Below, in pieces: positions 4,605 to 20,642 of a stretch of 64,000 bases of DNA. Numbering within the stretch: position 1 is the first letter of the stretch; each line of letters opens with the position of its first letter. The stretch covers positions 120,550 to 184,549 of the forward strand of contig CANTFL010000042.1 in assembly GCA_947650285.1 (NCBI GenBank), in the 5' to 3' direction. Under the pieces are notes generated by a model that saw only the letters and a list, made by a program, of their open reading frames with translations, searched no databases and was not told where the DNA came from. The position numbers and the translations under genes were made by a program. The DNA comes from Hyaloperonospora brassicae. Its lineage: Eukaryota; Oomycota; Peronosporomycetes; Peronosporales; Peronosporaceae.

Positions 4605-7600
4605 ATGGATGCGTCTCCTTTCACCGCCGCTCGCATCAACAAGTTCTCCGGAACAAACTTCCATGTGTGGAAGTTCAAGATGCAAATGGTGCTGGAGGAG
4701 CGAGAATTGTGGGACGTCGTGAGTGGCGAGGTCAAGCTCGGGTACTGCAAAAATACTTTGGACCAAGCGACATTCAAGCGAAAGTCGCGGAAGGCACTAG
4801 CGATAATATGTCTTGCGATGGAGGATTCGCAGTTGCCACTGGTTCGCTCGTCGAAGGACGCGTATGATGCATGGTCACGTCTGGAAGGACACTACGAGAA
4901 GAAGAGCTTGGCCAATAAGCTCTTTCTTCGTCGACGCTTCTTCACGACAATGATGGGAGAAGGTGATGACGTGCTGGAGCACATTAACCGACTAAAAAGT
5001 CTGGCGGAGCAGCTCGACGCAGTCGGTGCTCCGGTCAGTGAGGATGATTTGGTCATCACGCTTCTGGCCAGCCTTAGCGAGTCGTACCAGTTCCTAATAA
5101 CAGCTCTGGAGTCGAGAGCCGACTCGCTGTCTTGGGAACTAGTGACGTCTCGGCTAATGCACGAAGACTGAAGCGCAAGGAACAAGGTGGCGGTATCGAA
5201 GGAGCCGCGCACGTTCAAGCTCAAGCTTTCATGTCAAGGGACAGTAAGTACAAGGCTCGACCGGTGAAGAAGACTGGTGCGTGCCACAACTGTGGAAAGC
5301 AAGGCCATTGGATTATGGAATGTCCCTCGCGGTTTCAGAGAGACGCTGAAAGACACAGGAGTCAGCGTGCAAATATTGCGCAAGAACAGGATCTTGGCGA
5401 TTACCTTTTCTCGGTCGGTGGTGGCAAGTCCGAGTCGAGTAACACGTGATTGGTCGACTCAGGTGCGACGCAGCATATGACAAGTTCTAAAGAGTTCATG
5501 AGGAACTACAAGGACTTTGGACCAGTCGATGTACACCTTGCTGATAATGGTGTTGTTCAAGCGGTTGGAAAAGGTGACATTGTCATGTCGATCACGACTC
5601 GTCAAGGAATCAAGAAGGGTGTGCTCACCAATGTGTGGTATATTCCAAAGCTATCTAGAAACTTGTTTTATGCTGGAAGATTTATCACGGACGTTGGGCC
5701 TGTCACCTCTGAAGTCGATAGTTGCATCGCGGAAACGAAGGGTGTCAAGTGGAAACTCGGTGCACTTGAAGGAAAGGGATTGTTCAAGCTTTGCATGACA
5801 CCAGAGCTTACTGACGAGGTCCATGTGGCAACTTCGAAGAGCAAAGGAGAAAACGCTTCCTACCTTTGGCATCTTCGACTTGGCCACATTAGATATGGTG
5901 GTCTTGATGCCATCCTCAAGAACGATATCAGCAACGGAAGCGGTATGAAGTCGGTGCAGAAGTGGGAGTTTTGTGAAGGGTGTGCTCTTGGCAAGCAAAC
6001 ACGTGTGATCTATATGCCCAAGTCACCCAACCGCGCCAGCATGCTGCTAGAGGTCATTCACAGCGATGTGTGTGGTCCCATGAAAACTCCTACCTTCAGT
6101 GGAAAGCGGTACTTCGTGACTTTTATTGACAAATACTCACACTACTGTGTGGTGTATCTGCTTCAGAACAAGTTTGAAGTAGCATCCAAGTTCGCTCAAT
6201 TTGTCGCGTTGGTGGAAACCCAAACTGGCAAGCGTGTGAAGACTCTTCGAAGTGATAATGGTGGCGATTACACTTCCAGCACGATGTCCAAGTTCTGTGT
6301 GGACCATGGAATCGTGCAGAAATTCACGCCGCCGTACACACCTCAATTGAACGGTGTCGCCGAGCGGATGAATCGGACTTTGGTGTAAAGCACTCGTTGC
6401 ATGATGGAACATGCTTAGTTAGTTAAGTCGTATTGGGGTATGGCAGTCATGACTGCAAATTTCCTACGTCTTCGCTGTCCAACTCGTTCTACCAGTCATG
6501 ACCAGACAATCTACGAAGTATGGAATGGCAAGAAATCTATTCTTGCAAACTTGAAGGTTTTCGGATGTCATGCGTACGTACATGTGCCCAAGCCAAAGCG
6601 GTCCAAGCTCGATGCAAGATCAATTCAGTGTCGGTTTATTGGATACTCCGACCATGAGAAAGCGTACCGTTTCGAGGAGACAAAGAGTGGTCGTGTATTG
6701 GTTAGTCGCGACGCGCTGTTCATGGAGAATGTTTTCGACAGTGGAAAACGAGACTATCTACAAGACGAATTCGTCGTCGAAGACGAAGCTTTACTGGACG
6801 ACGAGGATGTTCCTATGGAGGAAAGCTCGTCCCATGACACCATTAACATGGATTTTGAAGATGCTACGATGGGTGGAAATGAGCCCGGCAATAAGAGGCA
6901 CCAACGCACTCAGTCATTGGAAGCCCTGGCCAACGCTACTGAGTCGAAACGTCGAGCTCGGTACCTTACCATGGCCGAGATGTCTGCCACGGCTGATACC
7001 GGTCACTCCGTTGAGACTGCCTACGTCGTGGATTCAGTGGAAGATTTACCTACGTCATTCAAGTCAGCAATGGAATCCAGCGACGCAGTCAAGTGGAAAG
7101 AGACTTGTGATTCCGAAATGCATTCCCTTCGTCACAATGAGACCTGGGATCTCGTAACGCTTCCACAGGGACGCCAAGCAATCGGCAACCGATGGGTTTT
7201 TTGAGTGAAGGAGACCAAGGATGGAAGATTTGAGCGGTTTAAAGCGCGTTTGGTGGCCAAAGGTTTCTTACAGAAACATGGTATTGACTATGACGAGACC
7301 TTCGCTCCAGTCGCCAAGTTCACATCCATTCGAGTCTTACTTAGCTTGGCGGCGAAGTACTCTCTCAACATTCACCATATGGATGTCAAGACAGCATTTT
7401 TAAATGGACATCTTGAGGAAGACATCTACATGGCGCAGCCGGATGGATACGCTGATGAAGATCATCCGGATTTTGTGTGCCAGCTCAAGCTCTCTCTCTA
7501 TGGTCTAAAGCGGTCACCCCAGATGTGGAACCAGACGATCGACAAGTTTATGTTGGACTTGAACTTTCAGAAGTGCAAGACCGGCCATTGCATTTATGTC

Positions 7601-8630
7601 ATGCGAGATATTGAACGCGTGATTTTTGTGGCGCTTTACATTGACGATTTGGTCCTCGCAAGCAACGACACCAAGCTGATTGCATCGACCAAGGCTGCGC
7701 TAAGTGAGCGCTTTGACATGACGGATCTTGACGACCTCAAGTACTTCTTAGGAATGGAAGTCCAACAAGATCACACATCTGGCACGACCTCAATTTGTCA
7801 GTCCAAATTTGCGAAGTACATACTTGAGAAATTTGGCATGGAAAGCAGCAATCCGGTCAAAACCCCGCAAGAACCAGGACTTAAGCTGAAAAGATCAATA
7901 TGCGTGAATGGGTGCAAGCATAACGAAACGATGGAACATGTGCCGTTTCGCAATGCCGTCGGATGCTTGATGTACTTTATGGTGGGTACACGCCCAGACC
8001 TTGCAGCTGCAGTGGGAGTACTGAGTCAGTTCTCGGCAGACCCCTGTCCGACCCATTGGCAAGCACTCAAGCGAGTCTTCCGTTACATTCAAGGCACGAG
8101 AACATATGTAATTGAGTATCGAGCAATAAGCAATGACAAATTGCACGGCTACTCGGACGCAGACTGGGCTGGAGACATTGAAGACCGACGAAGCACAAGC
8201 GGGTACGCGTTCGAATCGAACAACGGGTGCGTAAGCTGGAGAAGCAAGAAACAGAGTACTGTGGCTCTGTCATCTACAGAAGCGAAGTACATGGTTTTGA
8301 CAGATGATGCACAAGGAGCAATTTGGCTGAAGGAATTCTTTGTGAGCTTGGCGAGATGAGGAGCGATGATGCAGTAAAGGTATACGAGGACAATCAAGAG
8401 TCAATCGCTTTGGCCAAGAATCCCGGATTTCACAAGCGCACCAAGCACATTGACATTCGGTATCACTTTGTGCGAGAAAAATCTGCTGAAGGAGAATTGG
8501 TGCTGGAATACTGCTCGACCAAGGACATGAAGGCCAACCTAATGACCAAGCCAAATCCTGCAGTCCAGTTTCAGTATCTACGGAACATGCTGGGTGTAAA
8601 GGTGCTGAATTCTGGCGAGGCGAGTGAAAG
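4605..8630 (+). pseudogene. Copia gag-pol polyprotein, disrupted
   Basis: Gag (UBN2-like, start ATG 4,605; an in-frame ATG at 4,554 falls inside the primer-binding site) runs to a stop at 5,169-5,171. After a frame change the frame holds a zinc knuckle CHNCGKQGHWIMEC (5,282-5,323). A TGA at 5,447-5,449 lies directly before the protease motif DSGATQH (about 5,456). The GAG-pre-integrase HHCC region and the integrase core follow (HSDV, SDNGGD, ERMNR) to TAA at 6,386-6,388, with further stops to about 6,440. RT resumes and is cut by TGA at 7,202-7,204 just after NRWVF; the catalytic YIDD is near 7,640. RNase H (SDADWAGD, STEAKY) ends in a frameshift near 8,335, with its last part at 8,335-8,620. 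Five or more lesions mean it cannot make a full polyprotein. Confidence 0.93.
8613..8630 (+). other. Copia polypurine tract
   Basis: Purine-rich GGCGAGGCGAGTGAAAG immediately precedes the 3' LTR at the place where plus-strand priming occurs in LTR retrotransposons. Confidence 0.7.
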
Positions 8631-9010
8631 TGTTGAAATAACTACGCCTCGGCATGAGTTTTCACACAAGAGCGTGTAGCTCATGTGGTATGGTGTGGCA
8701 GATAATGCGAGAGGTCACATAATCGATATCCAGTGGTCGCAACAAAAGTCAAAACCTTCGGGCACTGGTGTGCCGGGGTTCACCAGCACTGTCCTGCCAG
8801 ACATTGACGTCCCCCATGTTTAGATGTTTGTTAGAAACGCTCTGTCTGCATTAGAAACGTACGAATAGACGAACAGTAATGCGCGACCAGACGATTACTA
8901 ACGTAGAGTCAGAGAGAATCCAGTAGGCTTAGAGTAGCAACAGGAGGTTGTGAACTAAGGACCTAGATATATTCACTGTGCATTTTGCAAAACTTCGATC
9001 ACTTCCTTTT
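8631..9010 (+). repeat. Copia 3' LTR
   Basis: Same ends and length as 4,170-4,549. The box-A-like motif is kept, but the box-B region is changed (it reads ATAATCGATATCC). This is also where most of the differences between the two LTRs are concentrated. Confidence 0.93.
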
Positions 9011-9849: not shown

Positions 9850-11286
9850 CTTGCGAATAGGGGTTCCTCGCTACTGCGATGTCACATGGAGAACTGATCT
9901 TCTTCATCCGTGGTCATGCCAACTACCCTTTACAGGGCGACGGCACTAGTGATCAGCACTGAAGAGGGGGAAACAAGTTTTGGTAGCTGAGTTCTAAGGG
10001 TCGGTAAAAAAACACCTTGCTCCGTGTTGTGTCTCGTTGCACTCGATTGTTTCCTATTGTATATTTCTGTAGCAAATACCCTTCGTACGACAGAAAACAC
10101 GTTGATGGCCGACACTCTCAGTCTTGACAAACTACGCACTCGAAAGGGTCTAGTTGGCATTGGTCTATAGGCAGACCACCTATCGACCTCCACAAGTAGT
10201 ATCTAAGTCGTCGGTGCAGCTCTCCTCGAATCCATCGTCCCTTTTGATTATCTATGCTCAACGGTGCATCCTGTCCAGCCGTGTACGTACATCAACCTTC
10301 GCATTGTCTACATGCTGCAAGGCAATCCCGATCGATGAGTAAGTGCTTATATATCGACAAGTACCGTCTCATCGATGCGTGCTTTGATCATCGAAAATCG
10401 ATATTGCACCACAACAGACTTGACCACATCACAAGACCACATGTGCGACACCAACAGATGCGACGTGCAAGAGTCTTGACTCACACATTCTGCGGCACTG
10501 ATGTAAACTGAGCAAAGCAATACCTGACAAAGTCGATCGCATAGCAGCAACGTTGTCAAGCTTGACGATGGTGTGTGTACAACAAACTTCGTCTACCGAT
10601 GACACAGTTCCCGGCAAACATTCCACGGACTTGATGACTTTCTGTGTAAGTTCTACAATGTCGCCTCCAACGTTGTGGCCAGATCCAGCGATTGTTGAGA
10701 TTTACAAACATCGTCCTGGCAACGCCTCAGAAGGCAGGTGCGCGATTGAGGCAACTGTACATGAGATACCGTGCCAGTCATCATTCGTATTGCCTGCGCC
10801 GAACAGTTACAACTATGACGACTGTGTCCGGAGAAGTTGGTCTGAACGATAGGCCCGTAGTACGCTTCTCGTTCTGTTCGGTATCACATTGCAAGCAGAG
10901 ATACGAAGTGAGAATCGAATGACGCATGGACATGCTCGATGAACAGCTCAGACCTTGACCGGCAACAGCCGCGCCGACACGTGGATGAGCTGTGGATGAG
11001 ACACGAATACAATGCCTATCAGGTCGCGGTACTGTATTCGTTTGTACACGGACCAGAGGGTGCTGCAATCCCCACATTCAGCTGCAATATGTATCTGGCC
11101 GCCAAGCAACTTGGCAGACCATTTCAAGAAAAGAATCGTGATGAAGCGAGTCAACTTGATTTCCACGTAGCCATCAGCTTTCTCTAGTGTCGACCCTTGA
11201 TCGGACGAGACGCGGTTGCTTGGTCGAGTAGCTAAATCCGCTGGAATGTCTGACAAGGACGTCTCATACCGGCGCCAGACGTCAGT
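9850..11286. other. Diverged duplicated DNA with a possible coding remnant
   Basis: Corresponds to 27,640-29,926 minus two solo LTRs. At 10,550-10,730 the frame around SLTMVCVQQTSS and, further on, DPAIVEIYK is recognisable in both copies (28,750-28,930 in copy 2, with frame changes), which hints at an old gene. No domain is recognised. Elsewhere I see no gene. Confidence 0.35.
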
Positions 11287-11698
11287 TGTAACGGGACACA
11301 CCATTGCGTGAACCTAACGCAAGGGTATCGTGCACCGACAAGCGTACACGAGGCAACTGAGGAAGGAGTAGGTAAGACAGATGCAACACTGTCTTAGTAA
11401 AAAGTAGAACTGTTATATTAATATAATTAAGTCTTTAACCACTGTCTCTCGGTTTGACTTAATCCAATTATACTAATATAACTGCATGTATGGTGACGTC
11501 TCGTCACCACTCATTGCGCGCGTCTTGCGGCGATTGGTGGGTTGATATCATCTAGATATCAACCAATGAGCAGACTCTTTGGTCGACCCATCAATTTCAC
11601 CACTATCGGTGATATTGTTTAAAGAATATTCAACATAATATTCTATATTGTCATTATCTCTCAATTGACAATTCCATGTAACGGGCTGCCCCGTTACA
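11287..11698 (-). repeat. Gypsy A LTR (3' LTR in sense direction)
   Basis: 412 bp. Contains a row of adjacent hairpins, for example 11,374-11,395 (AAGACAG/CTGTCTT) and 11,623-11,644 (AGAATATT/AATATTCT), a GGTTGATATC/GATATCAACC pair and a terminal TGTAACGGG/CCCGTTACA pair. The hairpin at 11,374-11,395 is missing from the partner LTR. Confidence 0.93.
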
Positions 11699-11713
11699 TC
11701 ACCCCCCCCCTAA
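11699..11713 (-). other. Gypsy A polypurine tract
   Basis: On the minus strand the tract TAGGGGGGGGGTGA lies against the 3' LTR. This is the expected place and composition for plus-strand priming. Confidence 0.7.
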
Positions 11714-11829
11714 CTGATAGTAACCGTGTGACTTTTTAAATATGGCGGCCACCCGTTGGGCACCATTGGGACAGGGGGCACTTGTTGGGTCCGTTCCATT
11801 CACTTTCCACCCGACCTCGCATAGTTACC

Positions 11830-12720
11830 ATGTCTATGCGGGGTGACTCAAGACACGCACAGCCCGGTGCTATGCCAGCCTCTGCGGCAGACGATTCGTC
11901 GTCTGCTGCTCGTTCTCCGCCTGCAGCAACAGGTGCTGCAGGTGCACGCGGTATCACACCGCGTGCGCATGATGACCCTGATGTAGAGGTCATCTACTCT
12001 GGCGAGTCAGACGCGTCTGACTCGGGCAATGCTCCAGAGGCGTCTCACTCACCGGCGACGCCTCAGTATTCGCCAAGACCACTGCCGAACGAACGGACTC
12101 GTGATTTGCATCACAGTATGTTCGGCAGTGATGATGATGATGATGATCAGGGTGGTGAGTTCTATTCTTCACCACCGCCGGCTCGTGCGTCTTCGCACGA
12201 GCGTGATGACGATGGCGCGAGCCGTCGTCAATCTGGGAGCCGTGGTACCGACAAGGGTACCACTGTGAAGCGTGATGAGTTGAAGCCGTGGCGTTTGCCC
12301 GAACAACTCATCAATAGCTTGTCTCACGAGACAAGCCAACACCATCGAATACCCTTATTCGATGCGACTGAGCTTCACGGCTTGAGTCCCGGCGCGAGCA
12401 ACTTTCGCGCTGAGGAATACTTTTATCTCGATGTCTTTCTTAGACATCGATGGTACAATGGAAACCAAAAGCGTGACAAGGCCTCGCTTTTGGCTGCGTG
12501 GAACGCGTTCGTCCAAAACGTAAAGAATTTTGGACGAGAAGGGTGGCTCAAGAAACTTGAGGCAACACGCCTCAGGTTCGAAAAGCGAACACCAACCGGT
12601 GCCAGGTACCGGTTGCACCGTTTGTCAAGTGAGGCCGGCATTCCATGCCTCACTTGGGAGACCCTTGTGCGAGTTGTGCTGACAACTCGCAACGCGCGCA
12701 GAGGGACGTGTATTCCCTAG
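11830..12720 (+). CDS. Antisense ORF of Gypsy A, N-terminal part
   Basis: 296 codons on the strand opposite gag-pol, between the chromodomain and the 3' LTR. ATG 11,830 is chosen over non-ATG codons upstream. The first 160 residues are low-complexity and acidic/serine/proline-rich with a run of six aspartates. A folded-looking part follows (about residues 165-290), rich in W, F and R/K. No recognised domain. Antisense ORFs in this position are known from some plant Gypsy lineages, with unknown function. The frame stops at 12,718; a coiled-coil segment on the same strand at 13,064-13,369 may be its continuation. The uninterrupted length in an otherwise broken element suggests recent constraint. 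Confidence 0.6.
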   Translation: MSMRGDSRHAQPGAMPASAADDSSSAARSPPAATGAAGARGITPRAHDDPDVEVIYSGESDASDSGNAPEASHSPATPQYSPRPLPNERTRDLHHSMFGSDDDDDDQGGEFYSSPPPARASSHERDDDGASRRQSGSRGTDKGTTVKRDELKPWRLPEQLINSLSHETSQHHRIPLFDATELHGLSPGASNFRAEEYFYLDVFLRHRWYNGNQKRDKASLLAAWNAFVQNVKNFGREGWLKKLEATRLRFEKRTPTGARYRLHRLSSEAGIPCLTWETLVRVVLTTRNARRGTCIP

Positions 12721-12810
12721 ATTCGCCCTGAAGAAGGGCACACATCTCGGCTGAGATGCGTGACGCGATCGAAAACGTGCAATCCGTCTTCAAGCGACTA
12801 GGGCACGTGT

Positions 12811-15800
12811 TTACCGATGGGCCCTCGGACCAATCGGACGAGTCTCGTCATACTGGCGGACGAGACCTTCAACGTCCATCAACAGCTGAGAGCGAGGCTC
12901 CCGGCTGTTCCAAGAGGGTGGATACCCCCGCCACTGGACGAGGTAGCTCGTCCTTGATCCTGAATCGTCACGGTAGTTCAAGATAAGATCCACTAGAAAG
13001 CGTTCACCACCGTGAGAATTCACCAAAGGATGTGGTGGAGGAGGAAAGACCTCCTCCAGATGATCTGGCTCACCATCTCGACCCTTACGAGATGGATCGC
13101 GCATCGATGAATTGCGCGATGACTTGAAGCACGAGTGCGACCGGCGCTACGCTTTGACTGATACCGTGCGGAAGAACCTCAAGGATCGCGAGTCTGATCG
13201 GGCGAGAGACCGCGCCTTTTACGCCATAGCGCAGCTTCATGTCGAGCGGGATATCCGCTCCCTATTCGGCGAGCTGGCGACAGCTCGCGGGGAGATATCT
13301 CGGTTGAATACCGAGGTATCATATCTGCGCGACCAGACGGATCGTCTGGAGGCGAACGCAAGAACTTGATGGATGTTCTTGAACGTGGGGGCTATCTTCA
13401 TCGGAAGAAGAAGGCTCGTACCGACAGTACGGTCTGAGTCGCCCCACGTAAAACGTAAGATGCGTGCGCATCCTACGTGGCAATTCGATAGTGTATGCAT
13501 TGTCCTTGCGATGCAACACTCGAAATGGCCCAATGTATTTCGGCAGTAGCAAACTACTGCCGACACTAGTGACTGCATGTCCAGGTAAGTCTACCGTAGA
13601 CAGTAGTACTAGGTCGTTAACCTTAAATGAAAGAACATTTGCTCTTCCATTCTTGTCTGCGTTCCGTTCCTGGCGGTCCACCGCATTTGCGATGGAGTCT
13701 TGAACGAAACGGACTACCGCCTCTCGAGTTAGCAGGAAGTTCTCTGCTGACTCGTTGTTTTGTCTTTCAGTGCGCTTCGTGCGCACTGCTAAGAGATTGC
13801 TCTCTTCTTCAGCGAGGTTGTCGTTTTTCTCGCTGGCATAATCGTTGACGATGCTGAATATACCAGCATCATCATCATCATCACCCGAGTCAATAATAGC
13901 GCTGCCGCTATTATTGAGGTGGTGTTCTTCATCGATGTCGACAATGTCGACATCGGCATCATACGTCACGACGGTAGCGTCGACACGTGATGAGCAAGAG
14001 CCAAAACGGTTTTTGCTCGAGCGGGTCCCTCCCCCCTTATCCAAGAGTCATACTCTAGAAGGGTGGGAACACGTGGATGGCTTAATCCATTCACGTAAAA
14101 CGGTGTGTGCTGGGTTGAAGCATGCACCGAATTATTGATGGCGAATTCCACCATCGGAAGGAATTCGCTCCAACTCGGAAACGAGTGGACATATCCTCGA
14201 AGGATCTCTTCGAGGACACGGTTCGCACGTTCCGTCTGACCATCGGTTTCCGGATGGTCAGAAGTAGACATCTTCAATCGTGTTCCAAAAGAACGGAACA
14301 CGATTTGCCAAAATGCCGCCGTGAACCGAGGGTCACGGTCGGATACGAGTTCACGGGGCAACCCGTGGAGTTTAAAGAACGTGTCGAGAAAGACACGAGC
14401 ACAACCTTGAGCCTTGATTGACTCAGGGACAGCAGCAAGATGGACCATCTTGCTGAACCGGTCAACAAACACAAGAATACCATTATTCTTGGAGCGTCTT
14501 TGGGAAAACCGAAGACGAAGTCCATTGAAACGGACTGCCAGCATTCTGCCGGGACCGGAAGAGGCTGCAATGGCGCACGGGATGAAGGACTAGGCTTTAC
14601 CCGTTGACAAACCTCGCAAGCACGTATGTACTTGCGGACAAACTGGTACTGGCGGGGTCAGTAAAAGTCACGACTTACCGTGAGGTAAGTCTTTTCTCTC
14701 CCACGATGGCCACCTGTTGAGGCATCGTGACACTCATACATGACGCGTAATCGCAAATCATTATGGGTGGGGACGACGACACGAGGCGTGTCACCGTCAA
14801 CGGCTGTATAATATAACAGTCCGTTACGCGTTGTGTACCGATCCGATGATGATCGGTACAAAGCCGGCAAATCCTTAAATGATTTACTGGATGAATCCAC
14901 CGGATGATCCATTAATCGCAGAAGATCCTTATCTTCTGCGTATGCCTTTCGTACGTCGTCAAGTAAGCTTGACGACGGGACACTGACTGACAGTGTCGCA
15001 ACAGTGGGCTTATCCTCACTGTTGAATTGTGCGACCGGCTCGAAATCGGGCCGGCACGAAAGCGCATCAGCGACGACATTGAGTCGTCCTGGTTTATACT
15101 CCACGGAGAAGTTATACTCCGCGAAGAAAGACAGCCACCTCGCTATTCTTTGCGAGAGATGTGGGCTGTTTAGGGCCGTGCGTAATGACGCATGGTCCGT
15201 GTAGACAACAAACGGTCTATCTCCCAAGAGATAGACGCGAAACTTAGCCAGTGCGTATTTCATGGCAAGGAGTTCCTTGTCATGCACTGGGTAATTACGC
15301 TCAGCTGTTTGCAGCTGACGCGACTGATAACAGATGGCGCGCTCCGCGCCATCTGCATCGAACTGCATTAACGCACAGCCGATTGCAAAATCGCTGGCGT
15401 CACAGACCACATGAAATGGTCTGTCCTGATCTGCAATCGCCAATATCGGCGACTGCATCAAGCTTTGCTTGATACCTTCGAAGGAACGCTGACACTCAGC
15501 GTTCCATGACCATTTGACATTTTTCTTGAGCAAGCAAGAAAGATGAACAGTCATCTCGGCGTAGTTGCGCGAGTACTTGTGCAAGTACGCCGCAAGACCA
15601 ATGAACTTCCTTAGTCCCTTGACATCGACTGGCACTGGCCAGTCGGTGATCGCCTTGATCTTTTCGGGATCAGGGCGTACGCCGTGTTTACCCACGATGC
15701 ACCCAAGAAGTGGTATTTCGCTAGCCGCAAATATACACTTCTTGAGGTTGGCATACAACTTATGCTTGCGCATAAGTTGAAGGACTTGACGAACGTGAGT

Positions 15801-17689
15801 TCTGTGAACTTCAACGTCCGTCTTTCCGTCCATAGCTCGGCTATGGACGAACACATCGTCGAAGTAACTCGGTGCGAAGTCTCGCACCGGTCTCAAGAGA
15901 TTTGTAACACATCTGTTGAATGTTGCAGGGGCATTGCTCAGCCCCTGTGGCATCACTAGCCACTCCCACAGCATCCCGCTGGGGGTACTCACTGCCGTTA
16001 ACGGGACGTCCCGTTCACGCATGAGGATCTGATAGAATCCATCCATCAGATCCATGGACGAAGAGATGGTACTCTTTGACATACCATCTATGATTACGTC
16101 CTTCCTCGGTATCGGCGTCTGAGCCGGTACCGTTGCAGCATTTAATATGTTGAATGCGTGCACTATTCGCCACCCTCCTGTGGCCTTTCGCACACAGAAG
16201 GTCGGAGAGCTGTGAGGGGATGTTGATTCCCTCACATGGCCCGCTGCTAAGCGATCGGCAAAGAACTTGTCGATCGCTAGTCACTTGTTCACGAGGCAGT
16301 GGCCACTGCTTTATGACACAGTATTTCGAGCCCGGTTTGAGCTCGATCTCGTGTCGAGTGCCTTTGTCCTTAGGCAACTCGCAAGGTACGGATTCAGGGA
16401 ATACGTCCTTGAATTCGATCAAATCCTTCTACAAAGGATTTGCCTGAAGTGACTCCCAGGATTGAGACGTGTATCGCTCAATCCGAGTCTTCTCATCGAG
16501 GACACTTTCGTCCATCGATGAGCTGCTGAGAACCCGTTCGTTATCATCAAATACTGTGGCCGACCGAATATCGGCCACATACTCGTCCTCTGTAACGAGT
16601 ATGCAGATCTGCTTGACTTTGCCACTACGCAGATCACGCAAGAACCGTTTCGGTTCTAGCTTTGGCAACTGAGTTATCTCCGAAGTTAACTTCGGAGGCA
16701 CAATCAGATCAAGCGTATAAGCGCCTACGCTTGATCCGTCATCAACCAAGACGTTCAACGTCTCGGTTTCTTCCTGGGAACTTCGTTCCACAGGTTGCTG
16801 AAGGCCTAATCCTTCAGCAAGTGACTCTTGAGTAATTCCTTCCTCAAGTACGTGGGGTTTATTCCCTCGACGTCTTCTGACTGTGGCTGTGCAACCACAG
16901 TCAGGTATTGATCCGCTACGGTCGACCCTCCAGTCGACCTAGGATATTCGTGTTGCCGCTTGTGGGCAAACGGTTTCTTCTATCTAAGATGCTGACCGCT
17001 AGGCATGCATCCACGTCCCGGTCCACTAGACTTCTTCGAGTGGTGGACCTTCGGCGCCGCCTGTAATTCTGTACAGTCGCCGGGAGTATGATCCACAGTG
17101 TAGTGAATAACTACACTGTGATCTTGTGTGGTCGTGCGAACGACCGAACCGCAAGTGAGGCCATCGCACTCACTCGCAGGACATCCACACGCTTGTGGAC
17201 GCTCCAAGATGTACATCAGATGGCCATCTGGTGAACAAGCGGCAGGCATCTTCACGGATCGATGCTGCCAGCTCACTCTTGGCTCGTACTTTCTGAGCCA
17301 AGGTAATCCCAGGATGACATCAAATTTGTCATCCAGATCCAGTACGATGAAGTCATCATCGTACTGTTCGCCCTCCAACGTGTAGTGGATTCCTACTACA
17401 CGTTTCTTAACGGCAATCGATGCCCCTGTTGCAAGGCGCACCGTCGTCCTTGTGAGGGGAATGTCGCGCTCAACGAACTTGAGCCTACGACCCTCTAGTG
17501 ACTGGCGACGAACAAAGTTGTTTGACGCCCCACAGTCTACTAGGGCACGAAGCGACGAATCATTTGTCGCTTCCAACTTCAAGGTGATGAGCGAAACGTC
17601 ATCACCAGGTGCAGAGACACACAACGATTGTGTATCTGGAGCAAGTTTCGTCAAGAGATTTGCAAATTCTCTTGAGATTGCTGGATCAG
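12811..17689 (-). pseudogene. Gypsy A pol: protease, RT, RNase H, integrase, chromodomain
   Basis: Protease: DCGASNNF near 17,537 (Cys in place of Ser after the catalytic Asp, a variant I associate with oomycete Gypsy elements). A stop at about 16,425 and a frameshift near 16,260 break the RT start. RT proper is open from 16,235 with YFDD at 15,855-15,866, followed by RNase H (CDASDFAIG, TDHASL) to about 15,130. The integrase zinc region is cut by TGA at 14,658-14,660, where a Trp is expected. The catalytic core continues after a frameshift near 14,510 (SDRDPRF, DGQTERANR), then another frameshift near 14,030. The integrase C-terminus (KYIGPFRV, GRLRPY) is at about 13,560-13,390. A chromodomain ([25 protein letters not shown]) lies at about 13,010-12,850 in another frame. 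Not functional as it stands. Confidence 0.93.
13064..13369 (+). other. Coiled-coil segment, possible C-terminus of the Gypsy A antisense ORF
   Basis: An open plus-strand frame of about 100 codons rich in E, R, D and L with heptad-like spacing (VERDIRSLFGELATARGEIS). It begins after a stop at 13,061-13,063 and has no good ATG. It lies antisense to the linker between integrase and chromodomain. Gypsy B's antisense ORF also has a long coiled coil, which supports reading this as part of one protein split by frameshifts or an intron. Confidence 0.4.
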
Positions 17690-17743
17690 TAGGGCGCTCC
17701 GCCCCTACTGACCCCGACCATTTTTTGATGGTCCGTCTCGCTG

Positions 17744-18859
17744 TTACGGCTTCGCAACAGCGCTGGACCCACGCCCATTGCCCTTTCTGGCGAATGGTCG
17801 TCCATTTCGCTCAGTACTGTTTGGTACTGGGCGTGGAGCACTACACTCATTTGCGAAGTGCCCTAACTTCTGACAGCGATTGCACTTCAGCAATCGCTTG
17901 TTTTTTGAAAGGCGAGGTCTCTCGCTTTCAACATAGCAGAGGTCCATTGGTTCTGGACCTCCGATCTCTTGTCGTCTCGGTGGACGATAAGAGTTTGAGC
18001 TAGCATGAGCCTGTCTCATGCTAAAGTCTTCCTGTTCTGCGGATGATATCGCATCCTCCAAAGTATTCAGCTTAAGGCGGAACAGATGACTCCTGACGGG
18101 CCCTTCTGCGAGCCCTTGCATGAACACCGTAATCAACGTGTGTTCATGGACTGGTTTGGCACTTATACTACTCGATAGGAGTCGTTTTTGTTGGGCGTAA
18201 GCGTGCATATCACGCTTACCCTGCTTGAGTTTCAGGAGCTCTGAACAAGTCCTGAACTCAGCTCGTGGCGGCTCAAACGTTTGTCTGAGCCGGGACTTGA
18301 AGTCATCTAGCGACCTAAACACATTTGGGTCGCTACTCTCGACCCCCAAGGCCCAAGGTTTGGCACGTCCTGCCAAGTGGGTCTGAGCAAATGTGAGTTT
18401 TATTTGCTCATCTTCGACGCGACGAGCCCTTAGGGCTCTGTCGAGTTCGACAAACCATAGTAACAGGGAGTCCTCCGGGACTCCACTGTACTTGGAAATG
18501 TCAACCTTCATGACTTCGGGACGACGCGCATGCGCCGTCCCGCCCACAGCAGCATGGAATTGCTGCTGTCTCAACAGCTCCGTCTGTTGAGCACCGAGTT
18601 CTCTCAACTGCTCGGCCTGTTGAGAGCCTTGCTGGTGAAGCAAGGCTACTTTCTCCCTCTCGAGAGCAAGTTCATTCTGAATGAACTTGGCGATAGCGGC
18701 ATGTTGTTGGTCTCTGTCTAGAGACTCCAACATGGTGCTGACGACGAGTTCGCCTACGGTAGAACTCATTCGTTCTACCGCACCCCATTCGATGTCACTC
18801 AAATGGGTAAACCCTTCACGCGTGGCGTGAAAGGTGTCTTCATCATCCAACATGTTCAT
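17744..18859 (-). CDS. Gypsy A Gag
   Basis: 371 codons, intact. ATG 18,859 lies about 28 bp after the primer-binding site. Residues about 60-105 are Gln/Glu/Leu-rich and probably coiled-coil. The central part (about 115-260) resembles the retrotransposon Gag domain (WFVELDRALRARR, LTFAQTHLAGRAKPW). A zinc knuckle CNRCQKLGHFANEC is near the C-terminus, followed by a basic Gly/Arg tail. It would build the virus-like particle and bind RNA. pol lies downstream in another frame. Despite dense inverted repeats the frame has no lesion. Confidence 0.9.
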   Translation of the reverse strand: MNMLDDEDTFHATREGFTHLSDIEWGAVERMSSTVGELVVSTMLESLDRDQQHAAIAKFIQNELALEREKVALLHQQGSQQAEQLRELGAQQTELLRQQQFHAAVGGTAHARRPEVMKVDISKYSGVPEDSLLLWFVELDRALRARRVEDEQIKLTFAQTHLAGRAKPWALGVESSDPNVFRSLDDFKSRLRQTFEPPRAEFRTCSELLKLKQGKRDMHAYAQQKRLLSSSISAKPVHEHTLITVFMQGLAEGPVRSHLFRLKLNTLEDAISSAEQEDFSMRQAHASSNSYRPPRRQEIGGPEPMDLCYVESERPRLSKNKRLLKCNRCQKLGHFANECSAPRPVPNSTERNGRPFARKGNGRGSSAVAKP

Positions 18860-18886
18860 GTTGGATGTTGTGGTCCTTGGAAGGAC

Positions 18887-18901
18887 TACAAAGTGCTACC
18901 A
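18887..18901 (-). other. Gypsy A primer-binding site
   Basis: On the minus strand, TGGTAGCACTTTGTA begins two bases after the 5' LTR. It starts with TGG as the complement of a tRNA CCA end. The tRNA was not identified. Confidence 0.65.
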
Positions 18902-18903
18902 GG

Positions 18904-19295
18904 TGTAACGGGGCACACCCTTGCGTAACTTAACGCAAGGGTTTTGAGTGCCCCGACAGACGTACACGTGGCAAGCGAGGAAGCGTAGGTAGGGTAAAAG
19001 TAGAACTGTTATATTAATAAATTAAGTCTTTAAACTACTGTCTCTTCGTTTGACTTAATCCAATTATACTAATATAACTGCATGTATGGTGACGTCTCGT
19101 CACCACTCATTGCGCGCGTCTTGCGGCGATTGGTGGGTTGATATCATCAAGATGTCAACCAATGAACAGACTCTTTGGTCGACCCATCAATATCACTATT
19201 ATCGGTGATATTGTTTAAAGAACATTCAACATAATATTCTTTACTGTCATTATCTCTCAAATGATAATTTTCATGTAACGGGCTGCCCCGTTACA
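18904..19295 (-). repeat. Gypsy A LTR (5' LTR in sense direction)
   Basis: 392 bp, same termini as 11,287-11,698. The 20-bp length difference is largely the precise absence of the AAGACAG hairpin between GTAGG and AAAAGTAG. Confidence 0.93.
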
Positions 19296-19460
19296 AGTAG
19301 TGAGTGTCGAGTGGGACAAGAGTGTCTGAGAGCACAAGAAGCAGCCAGCATTCGTTACGGTCAGGCGCAAAGTATGAATGTGAAGAAGGTGTCACTGTTT
19401 GCAGATCATCTGCAAACACGTACGTAAATACTGGATCGATGCTTCACATAGCCGGCGTCT
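19296..19460. other. Spacer 3' of the ABCG fragment
   Basis: No gene or motif recognised. It does not match the DNA expected from copy 2 beyond the Gypsy A empty site, apart from the first AGTAG. Confidence 0.4.
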
Positions 19461-20642
19461 CTAGTGAACTTGACGCATCGACGTGTACGAACGACCCTCT
19501 CTACTAGCCCTCGCGGCTCCCGTGTACTCCTCCTTCTTTGCGTGGCGTAGCCCATCACCGTCTTCGCAGCGCTCAGCAATATCACGGTGGACGGGAACCT
19601 GCAGCGACAAGAACAAGAAAGCAAGTACTTGCAGACTCACTGCAATCAGAGCGAGAGCTGCCACGTCGTAGTATCGATTGGCATACTCCATGCCGAGTGT
19701 CTTGAGGTACACTTCGCCGTAAATAGGTACGGCCGGGTACCCGGGGGCGTCAAACTCCAGGATCAGACCTTTCAGCTCGTTGGTCATGAGGATCTCGAAC
19801 GCGTAGCTGAAGATCGACAGGTGCTTCATCCAGCCCACTGACGACGGCATCGTCTGCGAATCGAGCAAGAAGCCGCCGAACAGCAACATGACCAGAAGCA
19901 CCACCGTTGCAACAAGGTTGGCAGACCCGACGCGTCTCGACAGTACTCCCACGAGAAGACAGATTGCACCTGCCGCGACGTTGAAGAGCACCAACGTCAG
20001 CGAGAACAGCAAGAAGCGCGTCGTTGATGCTTGGAGCCCCATTATCCAGTAAAAGATGCTTGCGAAGAGCGAAGCAGGCAGCATCCGCAACAACAACGTG
20101 TCCAGCGTGGCTTTGGCGAGAAAGTAGCTGAACGCTCCGTAGCACATGGCGCCAGTCTCACGAAGGAATATCGAGCGCTCGCCGATGAAGAGGTCCATCG
20201 AGCTCATACTTGCAAAGCCAAAAAAGGTGAGAATGAAGTAGAACGCGCCCATGCGGTTCTGGAATCCTGCCAGATCGTTGGTCACGTGGTTGAATATGAG
20301 CCCGCCGAATAGAGCTAGCGACAAGCTCAGTGTGACGTGCATCACCAGCAACGAGCGGTGACGGAGAATGTTCTGCGTCGTGCGCACAACCAGCACGCGG
20401 ACTTCCACCACAATCGGCCGCGATGGAGTCTCCATATCTTCGTCGATTGCGTCCGTCTCGGCTACAGCGGTAATTGCAGCTGACGGGCTACACGACGTGC
20501 CGCACGACGCTGGTATTTCACAAGTGCTTGCTTCTCCAGTCATATTTTCGCTTTCAGCTGGTACACTCCACATCTTTCCGACCCGCGGAGTGTCCAGCGA
20601 ACGATCTTCCTCCATCAGCGATCTCGTCTCCGTTGTCGACAC
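19461..20642 (-). pseudogene. ABCG-type transporter, membrane domain only
   Basis: A 393-codon frame. After a Ser/Glu-rich linker (to about residue 75) it holds the ABC2-type membrane domain of the ABCG (White/PDR half) family. About six hydrophobic segments begin near residues 95, 125, 165, 205, 240 and 335. Family features are the FLRETGAMCYGAFSYF stretch, SYAFEILMTNELKG and a final loop before the last helix. ABCG proteins have an ATP-binding domain before the membrane domain, and here it is missing: the frame is closed by TAG about 20 bp upstream of the first codon shown and the next 550 bp show no Walker or signature motif. It is either an N-terminally truncated remnant or the 3' exon of a rearranged gene. 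The frame itself is intact. Confidence 0.75.

What the first reader, a model, noticed from the sequence alone, without database searches (positions are those of the whole stretch)
11287..19295. A whole Gypsy retrotransposon built from back-to-back short hairpins
Seen: nearly every 25-30 bp of this element holds a perfect inverted repeat with a short loop, in gag, pol, the antisense ORF and the LTRs. In 18,517-18,886 alone I count 13, including 18,546-18,569 (9-bp stem), 18,571-18,590 (7), 18,601-18,626 (8), 18,627-18,645 (6), 18,667-18,689 (9), 18,757-18,780 (9) and 18,844-18,867 (10). RT has the same pattern (15,215-15,236; 15,331-15,355; 15,457-15,473; 15,483-15,505, the second and last with 10-bp stems), and so has the antisense ORF (11,888-11,905; 11,920-11,942; 11,944-11,966; 12,003-12,024; 12,081-12,128). 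By rough reckoning about one perfect 6-bp stem with a loop of 3-14 is expected in 370 bp by chance. The Copia (4,605-8,630) and Gypsy B gag-pol do not look like this. Inference: either selection for a chain of RNA/DNA hairpins compatible with coding, or a mutational process that perfects imperfect palindromes (template switching during reverse transcription or replication). I know of no described element with this property.
Basis: partly seen in the sequence, partly recalled or inferred. Interest (0 to 1): 0.88.

Follow-up and report, generated by a model that had tools for sequence, protein, structure and literature searches.

The report
Retrotransposon folded into hairpins throughout
A common jumping gene in a downy-mildew-like microbe has nearly its whole sequence shaped into short perfect hairpins, including its protein-coding parts, and the pattern seems to be kept by selection, perhaps to shield its RNA from the host's silencing machinery.

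Summary
The element (11,287-19,295) is a chromodomain-bearing Ty3/Gypsy retrotransposon on the minus strand of an oomycete genome. Perfect stems of 6 bp or more (loop 2-15) occur at 16-28 per kb in its eight full kilobases, against 0-10 elsewhere in the window. In 8 of 8 element ORFs, stems of 8 bp or more exceed all 200 synonymous-codon shuffles; in 0 of 10 other ORFs. Folding energy exceeds dinucleotide shuffles by 51% on both strands; the highest virus genome in the paper I consulted is 23.4%. Hairpin density falls with copy age (rho 0.80 with LTR identity). Fourfold-degenerate sites in stems diverge 3-10 times less than outside in six young-copy pairs, with few compensated changes, so purifying selection fits better than a palindrome-perfecting mutation process. 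G-U is hardly commoner than A-C in one-mismatch stems (22 and 19); loops peak at 4-5 nt; the longest stem is 14 bp. Family B has the trait moderately, C weakly, D not. Function is inferred: most likely self-folding of both strands that limits long duplexes and RNA-silencing access.

The parts
11287..19295 (-). Whole LTR retrotransposon, family A, hairpin-rich from end to end
   Evidence: Density jump at both ends; LTR pair; 18 of 20 fetched copies align over its (nearly) whole length in one piece, L013 and L009 partly or in pieces
18905..19295 (-). 5' LTR; sense strand starts TGTAACGGG and ends CCCGTTACA
   Evidence: hairpins 12.8/kb
11287..11699 (-). 3' LTR, 92% identical to the 5' LTR
   Evidence: hairpins 14.5/kb
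17744..18859 (-). gag: capsid and CCHC zinc knuckle; 24 perfect stems >=6 against 4.5 in synonymous shuffles
   Evidence: Pfam PF03732, PF19259, PF00098
16980..17654 (-). Aspartic protease
   Evidence: PF08284
14658..16235 (-). Reverse transcriptase, RNase H and start of the integrase zinc-binding domain; 27 stems >=6 against 5.0 in shuffles
   Evidence: PF00078, PF17917, PF17921
13969..14589 (-). Integrase core
   Evidence: PF00665
13319..14044 (-). Integrase C-terminal SH3-like region
   Evidence: PF24626
12814..13146 (-). Chromodomain
   Evidence: PF00385
11782..12720 (+). Antisense ORF (shorter here than the 540-residue open frame of copy L021); 22 stems >=6 against 3.5 in shuffles
   Evidence: 98 homologous proteins, those named with an organism from Hyaloperonospora and Peronospora; alignment
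17686..17711 (-). Hairpin with a 9-bp stem and 8-nt loop next to the gag-pol junction; the one stem in the same register in families A, B, C and D
18844..18867 (.). 11-bp stem with 2-nt loop at the gag start region
   Evidence: that the ATG used is here is inference
15331..15355 (.). Example RT hairpin, 11-bp stem with 3-nt loop

Best explanation
Family A is a Ty3/Gypsy lineage whose whole sequence is under selection to fold locally on both strands: chains of mostly 6-11-bp perfect stems with loops of about 4-5 nt, none longer than 14 bp, threaded through LTRs, gag, pol and an antisense ORF. SHOWN: the excess over codon-preserving chance, presence in all copies examined, decay with age, constraint on silent sites of stems, equal predicted folding of both strands, and hairpin-like loop sizes. 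INFERRED: the paired state itself is what is selected (about 0.8). INFERRED, less sure: the benefit is protection from RNA silencing. Sense and antisense RNAs that fold quickly into stems too short for Dicer would anneal poorly to each other and offer few open sites to small RNAs. Selection on both strands would explain why, in A, G-U pairs (which are A-C mismatches on the other strand) are hardly better tolerated than A-C. The confidence is for the whole statement, silencing included; I lowered it slightly after rechecking the G-U counts of family B.
For: Excess over synonymous shuffles. Mean z per 200 nt -6.9 sense and -7.4 antisense, against -0.3 and -0.1 in two control regions; energy excess 50.6% on each strand. 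Fourfold sites in six young-copy pairs: stems 0.35-2.1%, outside 3.4-6.2%, p 0.0025-0.014; two further, closer pairs 0 of 287 and 0 of 288 against 9 of 646 and 9 of 645, not tested (the pairs share copies). Shared (pre-insertion) variants against singletons, stem:outside 83:372 and 268:649, p=1e-5. Density rises with LTR identity, rho 0.80, p=4e-5, 19 copies; L020 is an exception. Stems of A avoid the codon register with least wobble freedom: 15 of 86 in gag and the two upstream pol pieces, p=0.0013; 23 of 104 with the distal pol piece, p=0.016. In A, one-mismatch stems carry G-U 22 and A-C 19 times. Loops peak at 4-5, loops 0-1 in 7 of 107 stems >=8, 13 with loops 10-14 against 1 with 15-19, longest stem 14. 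B and C share 20 hairpins in register (shifted controls 0.07 in gag, 0.18 in pol), with 10 compensated and 16 broken pairs. Small RNAs of both orientations map along Gypsy elements in P. infestans (PMC3522703, passages). The family carries a conserved antisense ORF.
Against: No transcript, small-RNA or probing data. Family D is recent too (LTRs identical) and carries an antisense ORF yet lacks the hairpins, so they are not needed for spread in this host. At fourfold sites alone the shared/singleton test is not significant (p=0.26). Compensatory changes within family A are few: 19 of 1359 pairs, weak against slid controls. The codon-register bias is absent in B (14 of 47 in pol) and in A's distal pol piece, which overlaps the antisense ORF (8 of 18). 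In B, G-U outnumbers A-C, 6 to 2 and 8 to 1 in two near-identical copies, which would fit selection on the sense RNA. Gaps between hairpins look random. Loops of A are slightly A-rich in sense.
Confidence: 0.4

Rival explanations
1. Selection acts on the sense genomic RNA alone, as in genome-scale ordered RNA structure of viruses or dispersed Gag-binding stem-loops for packaging, stability or translation.
For: Chain of stem-loops through coding sequence with duplexes rarely above 14 bp, like coronaviruses (PMC7642675, passages); loops of A slightly A-rich in sense (p 0.014 and 0.002 in two copies); G-U over A-C in family B (6:2 and 8:1); one stem conserved at the gag-pol junction.
Against: In family A, which has most hairpins, G-U is hardly commoner than A-C (22 and 19; 21 and 17; 21 and 20 in three copies), and antisense folding is as strong as sense. 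The 4-nt loops listed show no evident motif (by eye).
Confidence: 0.22
2. Selection acts on the DNA form: the single-stranded minus-strand cDNA made in reverse transcription (or extruded cruciforms) folds into hairpins that help strand transfer, nuclease resistance or integration.
For: Strand symmetry. Shared uncompensated variants in stems lean to A-C over G-U, i.e. G-T on the minus strand: 28 against 17, p=0.051.
Against: The lean is marginal, and one-mismatch stems do not show it. Loopless palindromes, which should form cruciforms best, are few (2 of 107 stems >=8). Family D spreads without hairpins.
Confidence: 0.18
3. A mutational process (template switching on the nascent strand) perfects short palindromes at each replication cycle; the hairpins have no benefit.
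For: Perfect stems with short loops are what such events make; stem codons show lower amino-acid identity to homologues in 6 of 7 comparisons, so the protein seems to pay a price; a few two-base differences between young copies fall on one arm only, e.g. at element positions 1891-1918 and 2476-2501.
Against: Silent sites in stems diverge 3-10 times less than outside, not at the neutral rate; few changes are compensated; B-C differences fall on both arms evenly (56 and 34 hairpins; p=0.80 and 0.98 for excess asymmetry, though repeated changes could blur this); family D in the same genome lacks the hairpins.
Confidence: 0.1
4. Chance, base composition or codon usage.
For: None found.
Against: Synonymous shuffles, dinucleotide shuffles and control ORFs.
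Confidence: 0.01

Closest known systems
Genome-scale ordered RNA structure (GORS) of positive-strand RNA viruses
   Same: Chains of short, largely unbranched stem-loops through coding sequence; pairings mostly not shared between relatives; paired sites less diverse; duplexes interrupted to avoid more than 14 consecutive pairs (PMC7642675, abstract and passages).
   Different: An LTR retrotransposon; genome mean 50.6% against about 15% for SARS-CoV-2 and 23.4% for the highest virus in that paper (SARS-CoV-2 exceeds 50% only locally, in ORF3a); equal on both strands; LTRs included. My shuffle method and fragment length differ from theirs.
Viroids folding into compact structures to escape RNA silencing
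   Same: Pervasive self-pairing, proposed to resist silencing (PMC3185485, start of abstract in a search listing only).
   Different: Viroids are small and non-coding (recalled); here 8 kb of mostly protein-coding sequence carries it as separate short hairpins.
Yeast Ty3 and Ty1 genomic RNA structures
   Same: LTR-retrotransposon RNA with functional local structures, in Ty3 also at the frameshift site (PMC11381356, outline with abstract and section 29).
   Different: Those are mosaic: stable regions up to 30% of the RNA; here each of 39 windows of 200 nt in the copy tested lies far below its shuffles.
Chromodomain Ty3/Gypsy elements of oomycetes (Phytophthora, Peronospora)
   Same: Same proteins; among the 120 best of 2313 RT hits are P. 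matthiolae (77%) and Phytophthora (about 56-73%).
   Different: Whether those species' copies share the hairpins is unknown: no DNA of theirs was reachable.

Membership tests
Ty3/Gypsy LTR retrotransposon (Metaviridae) | LTRs with TG...CA ends | tested here: met
   TGTAAC...GTTACA ends; LTR pair
Ty3/Gypsy LTR retrotransposon (Metaviridae) | gag, then PR-RT-RNaseH-IN order | tested here: met
   Pfam matches in that order on the minus strand
Ty3/Gypsy LTR retrotransposon (Metaviridae) | 5-bp target-site duplication | tested here: met
   13 of 18 full copies; the window copy has none
Ty3/Gypsy LTR retrotransposon (Metaviridae) | tRNA primer-binding site after the 5' LTR | tested here: inconclusive
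   CCTGGTAGCACTTTG follows the LTR; no tRNA was matched to it
Chromovirus-type Ty3/Gypsy | Chromodomain after integrase | tested here: met
   PF00385, E=4e-8
Genome-scale ordered RNA structure | Folding energy well below shuffled controls along the genome | tested here: met
   50.6% mean on each strand; all 39 windows of 200 nt at z -3.6 or lower on each strand
Genome-scale ordered RNA structure | Many short stem-loops, not one functional element | tested here: met
   178 non-overlapping perfect stems >=6 in copy L021, 36% of bases in them
Genome-scale ordered RNA structure | Found in positive-strand RNA viruses | tested here: not met
   The carrier is an LTR retrotransposon
Genome-scale ordered RNA structure | Structure of the sense RNA, wobble pairs accepted (this wording is general knowledge, not from the paper) | tested here: inconclusive
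   Family A: G-U 22, A-C 19, both strands fold equally; family B: G-U 6 and 8, A-C 2 and 1
Genome-scale ordered RNA structure | Structure shown by chemical probing | not testable with these tools
   No such data here
Palindromic mobile insert (MITE-like or GC-cluster-like) scattered in a host | Hairpins share one sequence | tested here: not met
   132 stems; the commonest shared 7-mer is in 3

The most novel reading that the evidence does not exclude
A retrotransposon lineage has rebuilt its entire coding and non-coding sequence into a two-strand chain of perfect short hairpins as armour against its host's RNA silencing: to my knowledge the most strongly structured protein-coding sequence described, and a strand-symmetric form of genome-scale structure that Ty3 families of one genome carry to different degrees.
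Probability: 0.33. Interest if true: 0.92.

Novelty: new variant of a known kind. Interest (0 to 1): 0.85.

Why it matters
Genome-wide RNA structure is known from positive-strand RNA viruses, and its benefit is not settled. Here it appears in a retrotransposon, at more than twice the genome mean of the highest virus in the paper consulted, and on both strands. Families A, B, C and D sit in one genome with strong, moderate, weak and no hairpins, which gives a natural dose series: small-RNA load, copy number and fold can be compared among them in one organism. It also shows how far a protein-coding sequence can be bent to a second, structural code, at an apparent cost to the protein.

Tried and rejected
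Chance, composition and codon usage: rejected by shuffles. A mobile palindrome: rejected, stems are unrelated. A host-wide mutational habit: rejected, the rest of the window and families D and X are at or near background. Even spacing: not found. Known RNA families: 0 Rfam matches at gathering scores in 11,000-19,600; no tRNA found in the window.

Led nowhere: relatives in viral contigs and genome contigs, none confirmed, so no other species' DNA was available. Paper searches for the property or its context; no listed title or abstract start describes such an element, but I read only parts of three papers (PMC7642675, PMC3522703, PMC11381356).

Corrected on rechecking: the loop-class counts overlap between classes, so the loop limit is taken; the codon-register count now includes the piece I had left out; family B's G-U lean is told.

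Dropped rows: one search set aside 390 ambiguous columns and columns with fewer than 15 letters; one search dropped hairpins with gaps in the partner family; L009 and L013 (broken or partial alignments) were left out, so 18 of 20 fetched copies plus the window copy were used; one search added 10 of the 11 partial family A stretches (L044 left out as partly aligned). One search tested six of the eight pairs.
Full report
WHAT IT IS. The window lies at G000:C21:120550-184549 of a 100.6-Mb genome in 898 contigs. The finding is a Ty3/Gypsy element on the minus strand with LTRs at 18,905-19,295 and 11,287-11,699, gag, protease, RT-RNase H, integrase and chromodomain in the usual order, and an ORF on the opposite strand at 11,782-12,720. 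The genome looks like that of a downy mildew: the RT's listed relatives include Peronospora matthiolae (77%), P. effusa (83% over 74% of the query) and many Phytophthora (120 of 2313 hits listed), the antisense protein's best named one is from Hyaloperonospora brassicae (82%), and the neighbouring ABC transporter's hits that carry an organism name are mostly oomycete. The species was not resolved; this placing is my inference.

Perfect stems of 6 bp or more (loop 2-15) run at 16-28 per kb in the eight full kilobases of the element, 10 in the boundary kilobase, and 0-10 in the other 55. With codons shuffled among synonymous positions (200 times per ORF) gag has 24 stems against 4.5, RT-RH 27 against 5.0, the antisense ORF 22 against 3.5; stems of 8 bp or more exceed every shuffle in 8 of 8 element ORFs and in 0 of 10 other ORFs. 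RNA folding of copy L021 gives a mean z of -6.9 (sense) and -7.4 (antisense) per 200 nt, no window weaker than -3.6, against -0.3 and -0.1 in two control regions. The energy excess over dinucleotide shuffles is 50.6% on each strand; the sense strands of families B, C and D give 17.6, 13.4 and 16.9%, so D shows that a moderate excess does not need perfect hairpins.

ANATOMY OF THE HAIRPINS. Copy L021 holds 178 non-overlapping stems of 6 bp or more, with 36% of bases in them. Of 107 stems of 8 bp or more in its internal part, loops peak at 4-5 nt, 7 have loops of 0-1 nt, 13 have loops of 10-14 and 1 of 15-19; the longest stem is 14 bp (12 in B). That is the profile of a folded single strand, not of palindromic protein sites. 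The 132 stems are unrelated in sequence. In family A longer stems are poorer in G+C (rho -0.18, p 0.04; in copy L015 -0.34, p 6e-5), as if a stability near -12.6 kcal/mol were aimed at; B does not show this. In A, stems with one mismatch carry G-U 22 times and A-C 19 times, with similar figures in two more copies; in B the counts are 6 and 2, and 8 and 1. So A favours neither strand, while B leans to the sense strand.

FAMILY, AGE AND SELECTION. All 20 fetched copies share the density (13.7-16.1 stems of 7 bp or more per kb of locus). In 18 full copies and the window copy, stems of 8 bp or more per kb rise with LTR identity (rho 0.80, p=4e-5): 13.9-14.3 where LTRs are identical, 10.9 in the window copy; L020, with the most diverged LTRs, is an exception at 13.4. 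So hairpins belong to the active element and decay after insertion. Between young copies, with hairpins defined from both partners, fourfold-degenerate sites in stems differ 3-10 times less than outside in six tested pairs (e.g. 1 of 289 against 22 of 644), while loops differ more than non-stem sequence in all eight pairs. Variants shared by two or more copies are depleted in stems compared with singletons (stem:outside 83:372 and 268:649, p=1e-5; at fourfold sites 13:56 and 24:63, p=0.26, not significant). Coding stems of A avoid the register in which third positions pair with third positions: 15 of 86 in gag and the two upstream pol pieces (p=0.0013), 23 of 104 when the distal pol piece, which overlaps the antisense ORF, is added (p=0.016); B shows no such bias, 14 of 47. 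The protein seems to pay a price: amino-acid identity to homologues is lower in stem codons in 6 of 7 comparisons.

OTHER FAMILIES. RVT_1 hits led to further Ty3 families. In 2.4-kb RT stretches, stems of 8 bp or more per kb are 7.1-13.8 in 11 copies of family A, 5.0 in two of B, 2.1-2.9 in three of C, 0 in two of D and 0-0.4 in two of X. Full-length B (L049, LTRs 99.7%) is hairpin-rich from end to end and its flanks are not; D (L050, identical LTRs, with an antisense ORF) is near background. The lineages seem older than the genera: A groups with a P. matthiolae protein, C with P. farinosa, D with P. matthiolae and P. ramorum. B and C share 20 hairpins in register (7 in gag, 13 in pol, none in the antisense ORF; shifted controls 0.07 and 0.18), with 10 compensated and 16 broken pairs, whereas A shares one with each of the others, the same stem near the gag-pol junction. 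So the trait turns over, can be kept for long times, and is strongest in A.

MECHANISM. Selection on pairing explains silent-site constraint, loop optimum, codon register in A and shared stems. Template switching explains perfect stems, but as the keeping force it predicts near-neutral divergence with most changes compensated, and one-sided differences. Divergence is well below neutral, few changes are compensated, and B-C differences split evenly between arms; a few one-sided two-base differences do occur among young A copies. Which molecule is selected is not settled. Strand symmetry in A points to both RNA strands or to DNA; B's lean points to sense RNA. I favour both RNA strands because the element carries a conserved antisense gene, because small RNAs of both orientations cover Gypsy elements in Phytophthora infestans (PMC3522703, passages), and because stems stay short. 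This last step is inference; no expression data were available.

COMPARISON. The nearest known kind is genome-scale ordered RNA structure of viruses: SARS-CoV-2 about 15%, HCV 7.5-10.7%, highest recorded 23.4% in that paper (PMC7642675, passages). Yeast Ty1 and Ty3 RNAs are mosaics with up to 30% in stable regions (PMC11381356, section 29). The present element differs in carrier, strength and strand symmetry. No comparable retrotransposon appears in the search listings named under Tried and rejected.

Noticed in passing
window 11782-12720 (+); L021:823-2442: The antisense ORF is a conserved protein (540-residue frame in L021) with homologues in H. brassicae, H. arabidopsidis (named 'Core-binding (CB) domain-containing protein') and P. 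matthiolae, two clusters there holding 1335 and 524 member sequences; weak coiled-coil-like Pfam matches at its C-terminal part..
   Followed up: partly
window 17686-17711; same place in L049, L050, L051: One hairpin is in register in all four families beside the gag-pol junction, with an outer pair that differs compensatorily between B and D: a candidate frameshift or readthrough stimulator.
   Followed up: partly
L050 (family D): Folding-energy excess of 17% without an excess of perfect short hairpins.
   Followed up: no
L051:448-985 and 8809-9001: This family C copy is inserted inside a family A copy (91-93% identity of the flanks to A).
   Followed up: yes
window 11282-11286 and 19296-19300: The window copy lacks a target-site duplication, unlike 13 of 18 other copies; it may come from recombination between copies.
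   Followed up: no
window 19461-20642 (-): ABC-2 type (ABCG-like) transporter gene or fragment directly beside the element.
   Followed up: no
L049 (family B): Stems of B begin with G more often than those of A (42 of 71 against 41 of 138), cause unknown.
   Followed up: no
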